A DNA stretch of 64,000 nucleotides. Origin: an uncultured Pelagibacteraceae bacterium (GTDB lineage: Bacteria > Pseudomonadota > Alphaproteobacteria > Pelagibacterales > Pelagibacteraceae). The translations under genes and the position numbers were made by a program. Positions 35,364 through 38,623 of the stretch are shown here, one piece after another. The first letter of the stretch is position 1, and the number at the start of each line of letters is the position of its first letter. The stretch lies in NCBI GenBank assembly GCA_902614355.1, contig CACMKP010000001.1:1-64000 (forward strand), read 5' to 3'. A model generated the notes under the pieces. It worked only from the letters and a program-made list of their open reading frames with translations, was not told the DNA's origin and did not search any database.

Positions 35364-36146
35364 TTAAATATTGGCAGTTGCTAACATTTTTTTTATTTCA
35401 GCAATAGCTTTTGCAGGATTTAAACCTTTAGGACAAGCACTAGTACAGTTCATAATTGTATGACACCTATAAAGTTTAAGTTCATCTGCCACTTTTTTTA
35501 GTCTGGCATTTCTTTCCTCATCTCTGCTATCAACTATCCATCTATATGCCTGTAAAAGAACTGCAGGACCTAAATATTTATCACCGTTCCACCAATAGCT
35601 TGGGCATGATGTTGAACAACAAGCACACATAATACACTCATATGCACCATCTAGTTTAGCCCTATCTTCTTTAGATTGAATAATTTCATTTGTCTCGGAT
35701 TTGGAATTATTCTTTAGCCAAGGCTCGATTGACTGATATTGTTTATACAATCCATCTAAATCTCCGATTAAATCTTTTTTAACTTTTAGGTGTGGTAATG
35801 GATAAATATCTATATCACCATCTATTTCTTCGTGTGGTTTTGTGCATGCTAAACCATTTTTGCCACCCATATTCATTGCACATGACCCACAAACTCCATG
35901 AGCACAAGATCTCCTATAAGCTAATGTTGGATCTATCTCATTTTTAATTTTATTTAAAATATCTAAAACTTTGGATGGACAATTGTCCATATCAACCTCG
36001 TAGCTATCTATACGAGGATTTTCGCCAGTTGAAGGGTCCCATCTATAAATATTTACTTTTCTTAAATTTTTTGAGCCAGTTTTATCTTTAAAATATTTAC
36101 CTTTTTTTATTTCTGAGTCTTTAGGTAAATTAATTTGTACCATCAA
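35364..36146 (-). CDS. sdhB: succinate dehydrogenase iron-sulfur subunit
   Basis: [16 protein letters not shown] [2Fe-2S]; [40 protein letters not shown]. Confidence 0.98.
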
Positions 36147-37918
36147 TATACTCTTTCCTGAGGTGGAAAATATTGAACATCGTTGGTTAAAGTAGACTTA
36201 TGAACTTCTCTATAACTTATTTTAGTATCTTTTCCATTGCACCAAGCAAGGGTATGTTGCATGAATTTTTCGTCATCTCTTTTTGGGTAATCCTCCCTCG
36301 CATGAGCCCCTCGGCTCTCTTTTCTGTTATACGCTGAATCTACTGTTACAACTGCCTGTCTTATTAAATTATCAAATTCAAGTGTCTCTACTAAATCTGT
36401 GTTAAATATTAAAGATTTATCTTTTACTGATACAGAGTCTAATCCATCGTAGGTTTCTCTAATTTCATTAACACCTTCTTTTAAAGTTTTCTCTGTTCTA
36501 AAAACTGCACATTTTGATTGCATTGTTTTTTGCATTGATTGTCTCAATTCTGCTGTACCGATATCTCCCTCTGCATTCCTTAATTTGTCAAAACGATCCA
36601 AACATTTTTGTGTTTGTGTCTCACTAATTTGTTCATGAGGCGTCCCTGGTTTAATTAATTCTGCTGCTCTTTTTGCTGCTGCTCTTCCAAAAACAACTAA
36701 GTCAATTAACGAATTGGAACCTAATCTATTAGCTCCGTGCACTGACACGCATGCAGCTTCTCCTATTGCCATTAATCCAGGCACAGTTTTTTCTGAACCG
36801 TTAACAGTCAGTACTTCTGCTTTGTAATTCGTTGGAATGCCACCCATATTGTAATGAACAGTTGGTACTACAGGAATTGGATCTTTTGTAACATCAACAT
36901 TTGCAAATAATCGCGCAGCATCAGTAATACCTGGCAACCTACTTTCAATTATATCTTTATCTAAGTGGCTTAAATTCAAATGAACATGATCTTGATCTTT
37001 TCCAACACCTCTTCCTTCATTTATTTCAATTGACATTGATCTACTTACAACATCTCTTGATGCCAAATCTTTTGCTTTAGGTGCATATCTCTCCATAAAC
37101 CTTTCACCTTTAGAATTTGTTAGGTAGCCTCCTTCACCTCTAGCACCTTCAGTTATTAATGTACCATGTCCATAAATTCCTGTAGGATGAAATTGAACAA
37201 ATTCCATATCCTGAAGTGGCAAACCTGCTCTTAAAACCATAGCATTTCCATCTCCAGTGCATGTGTGTGCTGAGGTTGCTGAATAATAAACTTTTCCATA
37301 ACCACCTGTTGCAATAATTACTGTATGGGCTCTGAATCTATGAATAGTTCCGTCGTTTAAATTCCAAGCAATTAAACCTTTACATGCACCATCTTTCATT
37401 AACAAATCTAGTGCAAAATATTCAATAAAAAATTCTGTTTTGTGTTTTAAAGCTTGTCCATACAAAGTATGTAAAATTGCATGTCCAGTTCTATCAGCAG
37501 CAGCACAAGTTCTTTGGACGATTCCATTTCCATAATCTTTGGTCATACCACCAAATGGTCTCTGATAAATCTTTCCATCCTCCGTTCTACTAAACGGTAC
37601 ACCGTATTTTTCTAATTCAATTACTGCCTTTGGAGCTTCTTTACATAGGTATTCAATACTGTCTTGATCGCCTAGCCAATCTGCACCTTTGACTGTGTCA
37701 TACATATGCCAACGCCAATCATCCTCTCCCATGTTACCAAGCGCAGCTGATATTCCTCCTTGCGCAGCAGAAGTATGACTTCTAGTAGGAAACACTTTTG
37801 AGATACATGCAGTTTTTAATCCTGCTTCACTTAAACCTACTGCAGCTCTTAGTCCGGACCCACCCGCACCTAAAACAACAACGTCATACTCATGATCAAC
37901 TATTTTATAAGAACTCAT
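36143..37918 (-). CDS. sdhA: succinate dehydrogenase flavoprotein subunit
   Basis: [36 protein letters not shown]-terminal ARAREDYP-like [23 protein letters not shown]. Confidence 0.98.
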
Positions 37919-37920
37919 AT

Positions 37921-38238
37921 TTAATTAATTAATATAATTGTAATTAGAGGAATTACCACTGCCGAAATATATAAAAGCCTATTTGCGACATTTTTGATTT
38001 TATCTTCCTTAATATAATCCTCAAAAACCTCACTTATACTTAATGCAGAAAAGAAATAAGCATTAACAATAAATATACTAAACAAAAACTTAGTTAAGGG
38101 GTTTGAAAAAAAGCTTACAAAATCTAAGTAATCTTGGTCATAGATTTTTATAAAGTTTAAAATAAACCACAACATCAGTGGAACTAGTAATGCACCACTT
38201 ATTTTTAAAAAAATCCACTTCTTCGTTGCATTTATCAT
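37921..38238 (-). CDS. sdhD: succinate dehydrogenase membrane anchor subunit (no histidine residues)
   Basis: Position between sdhC and sdhA; three TM segments; VFEDYI aligns with the quinone-site D-Y motif of SdhD. Confidence 0.85.
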
Positions 38239-38239
38239 G

Positions 38240-38623
38240 TTAAATTAAATTTTTCCCAATTATATAAAATATCACTGTTAAAATTAGAGAACCAAACATA
38301 ACTAACAGACCTGTAATTTTAGAAGTCTTTAACTCAAATCCATAGCCCAAATCCATGATTAAATGTCTTATTTCACTTAATATTTGAAATGAAAAAGACC
38401 ATGTTAGACCTAAAATAATAAATTTACCAATTTTAGAACTTAAGAATAAATTAATGATCTCGTGATTATTTTGATTAATAAAAATTAATGATACCCACAA
38501 ACAAATTAGAGTGATAGCAATGATATTTATAATTCCTGTGATTCTATGCGATATGGAAACTAAAGATGAGACATGCCATCTATAAATTTGAATATGTGGG
38601 GATAATGGTCTTTTATTTTCCAT
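38240..38623 (-). CDS. sdhC: succinate dehydrogenase cytochrome b-type subunit (heme-ligand His replaced)
   Basis: RPLSPHIQIYRWHVSSLVSISHRITG and FSFQILSEIRHLIMDLGYG. Confidence 0.93.
   Translation of the reverse strand: MENKRPLSPHIQIYRWHVSSLVSISHRITGIINIIAITLICLWVSLIFINQNNHEIINLFLSSKIGKFIILGLTWSFSFQILSEIRHLIMDLGYGFELKTSKITGLLVMFGSLILTVIFYIIGKNLI

What the first reader, a model, noticed from the sequence alone, without database searches (positions are those of the whole stretch)
37921..38623. SdhC and SdhD both lack the conserved heme b axial histidine: candidate heme-free succinate dehydrogenase
Seen directly: the 105-aa SdhD contains no histidine. In SdhC, KFIILGLTWSFSFQILSEIRH aligns without gaps to E. 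coli KFIMWGILTALAYHVVVGIRH, putting Gln at the His84 heme ligand. In Sdh[15 protein letters not shown] aligns to E. coli HAWIGLWQVLTDY-type sequence, with a non-His residue at His71. Quinone-site positions appear kept: Ser/Arg in SISHRITG (SdhC S27/R31), Asp-Tyr in FEDY (SdhD D82/Y83), and Trp and His in SdhB CPSYWW and YRCHTIMNC. So ligand loss looks selective and not general decay. Heme b is known to be dispensable for turnover in some Complex II variants. Inference: an iron/heme-sparing Complex II in an iron-limited ocean lineage. I do not know whether this has been described.
Basis: partly seen in the sequence, partly recalled or inferred. Interest (0 to 1): 0.8.

Follow-up and report, generated by a model that had tools for sequence, protein, structure and literature searches.

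The report
Heme-free succinate dehydrogenase of ocean SAR11
The ocean bacterium SAR11 (Pelagibacter), one of the most abundant organisms in the sea, carries a respiratory enzyme (succinate dehydrogenase, Complex II) that has lost both amino acids that normally hold its heme, and the comparison with relatives says the enzyme almost certainly works without heme, a state so far shown by structure only in yeast and a few protists.

Summary
In the window SdhC has Gln80 where E. coli has heme ligand His84, and SdhD (no His at all) has Phe63 where E. coli has His71. It is much wider than one genome: all 80 named Pelagibacter relatives retrieved, including the cultured strain HTCC9565, and every same-genus genome read have Gln at the first site; the second is Phe, rarely Tyr, and His in one two-genome lineage. 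The class norm is His/His (83 of 86 families sampled). Within SAR11, freshwater LD12 and its relatives keep both ligands; sister genera mostly lost only the SdhD one; a second SAR11 family has SdhC Tyr with SdhD His. The glycines one helix turn from each ligand changed too: SdhC Gly88 is kept in every tabulated His/His sequence and lost in every other. Quinone-site residues, SdhB cysteines and purifying selection are intact; ferrochelatase and cytochrome oxidase are present. Best reading: a functional, heme-free type-C succinate:quinone reductase whose heme cavity is filled by side chains, as in the solved heme-free yeast enzyme, possibly by a mirror image of the yeast solution. Iron sparing as the cause is untested. 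New bacterial variant of a known kind; spectroscopy of a cultured strain would settle it.

The parts
38240..38623 (-). sdhC, 127 aa membrane anchor, ligand histidine lost
   Evidence: TIGR02970 120 bits; AF2 pLDDT 86.1, Foldseek best hit E. coli SdhC, E 1.2e-5
37921..38238 (-). sdhD, 105 aa membrane anchor, no histidine
   Evidence: TIGR02968 52.2 bits; AF2 pLDDT 92.9, Foldseek prob 1.00 to E. coli SdhD, TM 0.79-0.82, although E is only 6e-3
36143..37918 (-). sdhA, flavoprotein, 591 aa; the only SdhA-type match over cut-off in the assembly
   Evidence: TIGR01816 959 bits
35364..36146 (-). sdhB, iron-sulfur subunit, all Fe-S cysteines and quinone-site W/H kept
38384..38386 (-). SdhC Gln80 (CAA) at the E. 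coli His84 axial-ligand position
   Evidence: invariant Gln in all Pelagibacter sequences read, CAA 96 / CAG 17
38372..38374 (-). SdhC Glu84 at the E. coli Gly88 position, one helix turn from the ligand; proposed stand-in for a heme propionate
   Evidence: Glu in all genus g1, g8, g9 sequences; Gly in every His/His sequence tabulated
38050..38052 (-). SdhD Phe63 at the E. coli His71 axial-ligand position
38038..38040 (-). SdhD Ser67 at the E. coli Gly75 position (Glu112 in heme-free yeast Sdh4)
   Evidence: PMC13066397
38203..38205 (-). SdhD Lys12 at the E. coli Arg20 position (heme propionate hydrogen bond in E. coli)
   Evidence: R in 8/8 His/His genomes of the same family, K in nearly all of g1/g8/g9; PMC3290573
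38543..38548 (-). SdhC His26-Arg27 (E. coli H30/R31); Arg invariant, His lost in L020 and L136, so not a fixed alternative ligand
38363..38365 (-). SdhC His87 (E. coli H91), kept in nearly all, Gln in L091
38014..38019 (-). SdhD Asp74-Tyr75 (E. coli D82/Y83) quinone site, invariant

Best explanation
This is the ordinary SAR11 succinate:quinone oxidoreductase (SdhCDAB), a type-C Complex II by descent, that assembles and turns over without heme b. Electrons go succinate -> FAD -> [2Fe-2S] -> [4Fe-4S] -> [3Fe-4S] -> ubiquinone directly; in E. coli the heme is not on that path. SdhC and SdhD hold together without the His-heme-His link because the former heme cavity is occupied by side chains: SdhC Gln80, Ser83 and Glu84 with SdhD Phe63, Ser67 and Lys12. 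Shown here: loss of both ligands and of the flanking glycines across the genus, intact quinone site and Fe-S ligands, purifying selection. Inferred: absence of heme in the protein, cavity filling, and a SdhC Glu84-SdhD Lys12 polar contact replacing a heme propionate contact.
For: (1) Gln at E. coli position 84 in 80/80 named relatives and in all same-genus genomes read; Phe at 71 in 79/79 of the named set with SdhD; in the wider genus Tyr occurs in five genomes and His in two. (2) Class norm is H84 83/86 and H71 85/85, one genome per family; about 40 further Pseudomonadota loci read by eye are all His/His. (3) Of the 15 SdhC/SdhD columns at least 98% conserved in 83 His/His families, exactly four changed in SAR11: H84, G88, H71, G75; the other eleven, including S27, R31, D82, Y83, are kept. 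(4) SdhC Gly88 is kept in all 94 His/His sequences tabulated and lost in all others, including lineages that lost only one ligand. (5) Synonymous codon variation at positions 84 and 88 with no amino-acid change; sdhC/sdhD dN/dS 0.02-0.34. (6) SdhB W164, H207, P160, I209 and all cysteines invariant in 77 sequences. (7) Precedents: a heme-free E. coli Sdh variant grows on succinate (PMC3290573); native heme-free type-C enzyme in yeast, and heme-free Complex II in Tetrahymena and Perkinsus (PMC13066397, PMC10227065). In yeast the positions equivalent to H71 and G75 are Tyr108 and Glu112, and Glu112 takes over a propionate contact.
Against: No spectrum or structure of the SAR11 enzyme. Single-ligand E. 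coli mutants can retain heme (title of Maklashina 2001, cited in PMC13066397; paper not read), and SdhC H30/H91 equivalents are kept in nearly all SAR11. Two genus g1 genomes (L144, L145) have His at 71. Order-level relatives with Tyr/His could keep a heme. The heme proximity of G88 is by pseudo-symmetry and conservation, not measured here; no complex with heme could be modelled.
Confidence: 0.86

Rival explanations
1. The heme is kept with other axial ligands, for example SdhC His87 (E. coli H91) or His26 (E. coli H30), or Gln/Tyr as weak ligands.
For: Both histidines are near-invariant and in E. coli lie at the heme propionate or against the ring (PMC3290573); single-ligand mutants of E. coli are reported to keep heme (title only).
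Against: SdhD of the window has no His. H30 is lost in L020 and L136, H91 in L091. H91 and R31 also shape the quinone region, which explains their retention without heme. Replacement of the ligand-side Gly by Glu, and of SdhD Gly75 and Arg20, points to a filled cavity.
Confidence: 0.08
2. Iron-sparing adaptation (a claim on the cause, compatible with the best explanation): the heme was lost because iron is scarce in the open ocean.
For: Marine SAR11 respond to iron addition (PMC11069385).
Against: Saves 1 of about 10 Fe per complex. Several small-genome families in the class sample keep His/His; Tyr/His cases outside SAR11 also occur. Ferrochelatase and heme-copper oxidase are kept everywhere tested. 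Relaxed constraint on a dispensable cofactor explains the pattern as well.
Confidence: 0.3
3. Non-functional or decaying anchor; succinate oxidation no longer reaches the quinone pool.
For: Loss of otherwise near-invariant residues.
Against: dN/dS well below 1, intact operon in complete genomes, all quinone-site and Fe-S residues invariant, no second SdhA-type enzyme over cut-off.
Confidence: 0.03

Closest known systems
Heme-free type-C Complex II of Saccharomyces cerevisiae (PMC13066397)
   Same: Type-C scaffold by descent, SdhD-side His lost, quinone site kept, the conserved glycine one turn from a ligand replaced by Glu, heme absent (shown in yeast, inferred here).
   Different: In yeast the SdhC-side His stays and pairs with Sdh4 Tyr108; Glu is in the SdhD-type subunit (position 75) and contacts SdhC-type Arg97. 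In Pelagibacter the SdhC His is Gln and the Glu is in SdhC (position 88), the pseudo-symmetric site, with SdhD Arg20 changed to Lys.
Complex II of Tetrahymena thermophila (PMC10227065)
   Same: Aerobic Complex II with two core anchors and no heme b.
   Different: Highly divergent, extra subunits, cardiolipin in the heme place; called type D by its authors.
E. coli succinate dehydrogenase (type C, 1NEK) and its heme-free variant (cited in PMC3290573)
   Same: Same subunits, quinone site and Fe-S chain; the variant shows heme is dispensable.
   Different: Wild type binds heme b through SdhC H84 and SdhD H71.
E. coli fumarate reductase FrdABCD (type D)
   Same: Two anchors, no heme.
   Different: SAR11 anchors match the Sdh families TIGR02970/TIGR02968, not the Frd anchors.

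Membership tests
Type-C succinate:quinone oxidoreductase (SdhCDAB) | Two three-helix anchors of the SdhC and SdhD families plus SdhA and SdhB in one operon | tested here: met
Type-C succinate:quinone oxidoreductase (SdhCDAB) | Quinone-site residues SdhC S27/R31, SdhD D82/Y83, SdhB P160/W164/H207/I209 | tested here: met
   invariant wherever tabulated
Type-C succinate:quinone oxidoreductase (SdhCDAB) | One axial ligand from each anchor for one heme b | tested here: not met
   Gln and Phe at the two positions. So it is not a standard heme-bearing type C; it belongs to the type-C lineage by descent
Heme-free type-C subgroup (yeast-like) | Type-C scaffold with ligand loss and replacement of the ligand-adjacent glycine by Glu | tested here: met
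   met at the pseudo-symmetric site, SdhC Gly88 to Glu; SdhD Gly75 is Ser or Thr
Heme-free type-C subgroup (yeast-like) | No heme in the protein | not testable with these tools
   needs spectroscopy or structure
Type-D (FrdABCD-like) | Anchors of the Frd C/D type | tested here: not met
   best family and fold matches are Sdh anchors; E. coli FrdD is only a weak Foldseek hit

The most novel reading that the evidence does not exclude
The Complex II of some of the ocean's most abundant heterotrophs is heme-free throughout the genus Pelagibacter and its sister genera, and heme was replaced repeatedly and in mirror image to yeast: by SdhC Glu88 facing SdhD Lys20 in Pelagibacter, and by SdhC Tyr84 facing SdhD His71 in a second SAR11 family (yeast: Sdh4 Glu112-Sdh3 Arg97 and Sdh4 Tyr108-Sdh3 His156), using the pseudo-two-fold symmetry of the SdhC/SdhD pair.
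Probability: 0.4. Interest if true: 0.85.

Novelty: new variant of a known kind. Interest (0 to 1): 0.74.

Why it matters
The heme b ligands of Complex II are close to universal in the type-C enzymes sampled here, and the role of the heme is disputed (electron sink, protection from reactive oxygen, structural rivet). A natural bacterial group that lost it, with close cultured relatives that keep the ligands (LD12 LSUCC0530 versus Pelagibacter HTCC9565), gives a clean comparison to test what the heme is for. It also bears on the iron budget of very abundant marine bacteria and gives a sequence signature (loss of SdhC Gly88 or SdhD Gly75) to look for heme-free Complex II elsewhere.

Tried and rejected
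Misalignment: rejected, ungapped alignment around SdhC H84 to solved structures and fixed spacing of 12 residues to the SdhD Asp-Tyr. Assembly error: rejected, same in complete single-contig genomes. Second sdhCD copy: none found. Loss of heme synthesis: rejected, ferrochelatase and COX1 present in all 25 genomes tested. Simple streamlining effect: not general, small-genome alphaproteobacteria in the class sample mostly keep His/His. A Q-H swap between SdhC window positions 80 and 17 looked like covariation, but with only three independent cases and many other separating columns it stays a note. Three look-ups of older E. coli heme-mutant papers found nothing held, so statements on E. coli heme-free and single-ligand mutants rest on later papers that cite them. 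Smith 2010 on iron limitation in P. ubique does not mention succinate dehydrogenase or cytochromes in its main text.

Full report
What is there. The window holds asd-sdhC-sdhD-sdhA-sdhB on the minus strand, next to a DMSP demethylase gene (dmdA) and a methylmalonate-semialdehyde dehydrogenase gene. The nearest named relative is the single-cell genome AG-899-G21 (SdhC 97% identical), and the 80 best named relatives are labelled Pelagibacteraceae or Pelagibacter, plus a few labelled only Pelagibacterales or Alphaproteobacteria, so this is a SAR11 genome. SdhC and SdhD score over the curated cut-offs for the Sdh anchors. AlphaFold models (pLDDT 86 and 93) have three long helices each and match E. 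coli SdhC and SdhD best in the PDB, with yeast Complex II chains also in the list; the SdhD match is by probability and TM-score, its E-values are weak.

The observation. The SdhC alignment to vertebrate SDHC is ungapped through the ligand helix and puts Gln80 under the ligand His. In a joint alignment with E. coli, SdhC Q80 is H84 and SdhD F63 is H71. SdhD of the window has no His. The codons read CAA and TTT at 38384-38386 and 38050-38052.

How widespread. All 80 named relatives have Gln at 84 and, where SdhD is on the contig, Phe at 71 (79 of 79), including Candidatus Pelagibacter ubique HTCC9565. Same-genus genomes read one by one are all Gln at 84, with Phe, Tyr (L016, L019, L023, L030, L137) or, in L144/L145, His at 71. 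A single-contig genome of 1,308,759 bp (G046; that length is HTCC1062's from my memory) is Gln/Phe. Outside SAR11, one genome per family of the class gives His at 84 in 83 of 86 and at 71 in 85 of 85; about 40 further Pseudomonadota loci, read by eye without a tabulated alignment, are all His/His.

The path of loss. In the same family, genera g5, g6, g7 are His/His. G045 in g6 has exactly the published length of the LD12 isolate LSUCC0530 (1,160,202 bp; PMC6018831). Genomes of g5-g7 also lack dmdA, as reported for subclades IIIa and LD12 (PMC10030771). Genera g8 and g9 are mostly His/Phe with three Gln/Phe members, and g1 is Gln with Phe, Tyr or rarely His. On a tree of partial SdhA, g1+g8+g9 form one clade (SH-aLRT 97; inner branches often weak), and the fewest changes are 5 at position 84, 5 at 71 and 3 at 88. 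The simplest reading is one change of SdhD His71 with SdhC Gly88 at the base of that clade, followed by His84 to Gln at least three times; early loss with regain is about as short by parsimony but less likely biologically. A second family of the order shows SdhC Tyr84 with SdhD His71 in genera g2 and g4 and His/His in g3. Three distant small-genome families (L233, L236, L237) also have Tyr84.

Why this says heme-free. Fifteen SdhC/SdhD columns are at least 98% conserved in the 83 His/His families; in Pelagibacter exactly four of them changed: H84, G88, H71, G75. The two glycines sit four residues from each ligand, at pseudo-symmetric positions (offset 13, like H84/H71 and H91/Q78; the pairing of H91 with Q78 and R31 with R20 is stated in PMC3290573). 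Gly88 is present in all 94 tabulated His/His sequences and absent from all others, also where only one ligand is gone. SdhD Arg20, a propionate partner in E. coli, is Arg in the 8 His/His family members and Lys in nearly all g1/g8/g9; SdhD 19 and 23 and SdhC 87, heme-pocket sites mutated in the same paper, changed too. Meanwhile SdhC S27/R31 and SdhD D82/Y83 are invariant, and SdhB P160, W164, H207, I209 and all cysteines are invariant in 77 sequences. Pairwise dN/dS of sdhC and sdhD is 0.02-0.34, mostly near 0.1, and in the genus Gln84/Glu88 vary only by synonymous codons. This is a maintained enzyme with a rebuilt heme site.

Alternative ligands. The only near-invariant SdhC histidines on the heme side are the H30 and H91 equivalents. 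H30 is Thr in L020 and L136 and H91 is Gln in L091. Both have other roles near the quinone site or propionates, so their retention is expected without heme. One-sided heme binding cannot be excluded from sequence.

Mechanism. From PMC3290573: the [3Fe-4S] cluster reduces quinone directly, the heme is off the path, and a heme-free E. coli variant supports growth on succinate with reduced rates. From PMC13066397: yeast Complex II, type C, has no heme; Sdh4 Tyr108 (12 residues before the quinone Tyr120, so E. coli 71) pairs with Sdh3 His156, and Sdh4 Glu112 (E. coli 75), which replaces a glycine, takes over a propionate contact with Sdh3 Arg97. Pelagibacter has its Glu at the pseudo-symmetric SdhC 88 and a Lys at SdhD 20, the pseudo-symmetric partner of Arg31/97. 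I propose a Glu84-Lys12 (window numbering) polar contact there, the mirror image of the yeast one; and in family f2 a Tyr84-His71 contact mirroring yeast Tyr108-His156. L233 and L236 carry Glu at SdhD 75 itself, as in yeast. These contacts are inference; no complex could be modelled with the tools here.

Cause. Ferrochelatase and heme-copper oxidase are present in all 25 genomes tested, so heme is made and used elsewhere. The iron saved is one atom of about ten per complex (9 in the three Fe-S clusters; general knowledge). Several other small-genome families keep the heme ligands. Iron sparing is possible, relaxed constraint on a dispensable cofactor equally so.

Known or new. Heme-free Complex II is known for yeast, Tetrahymena and Perkinsus by structure, and as type D for E. 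coli FrdABCD. Searches of the held open-access papers for SAR11 or Pelagibacter with succinate dehydrogenase and heme gave no description of this (judged from titles, abstracts and term counts); subscription papers were not searched. I rate it a new variant of a known kind: as far as I could find, the first natural heme-free type-C enzyme proposed in bacteria, and in a dominant lineage.

Noticed in passing
window 38573-38575 (SdhC residue 17) and homologues: SdhC residue 17 (E. coli P21) is His in 113 of 116 family members with Gln at 84 and Gln in 16 of 17 with His at 84; the swap recurs in g1, g8 and g9. Too few independent cases to call covariation.
   Followed up: partly
G004, G098, G107, G173 (genome search handles): These SAR11 genomes have only a longer COX1 homologue (about 610 aa, E about 1e-137) instead of the usual about 546 aa one; G167 has both. 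Looks like a quinol-oxidase-type replacement in some lineages.
   Followed up: no
L144, L145 (G125, G098): His at SdhD position 71 together with Gln at SdhC 84 and Glu at 88: a retained or regained half-site within Pelagibacter.
   Followed up: partly
L233, L236, L237 (class-level families, genomes 1.2-1.4 Mb): Tyr at SdhC 84 with Gly88 lost; L233 and L236 have Glu at SdhD 75 as in heme-free yeast. Candidate independent heme-free enzymes.
   Followed up: partly
window 38613-38623: The start of sdhC overlaps the end of asd by 11 bases, and sdhC-sdhD-sdhA-sdhB are separated by 1-2 bases or overlap: a very tight operon with dmdA and an acyl-CoA synthetase gene just upstream.
   Followed up: no
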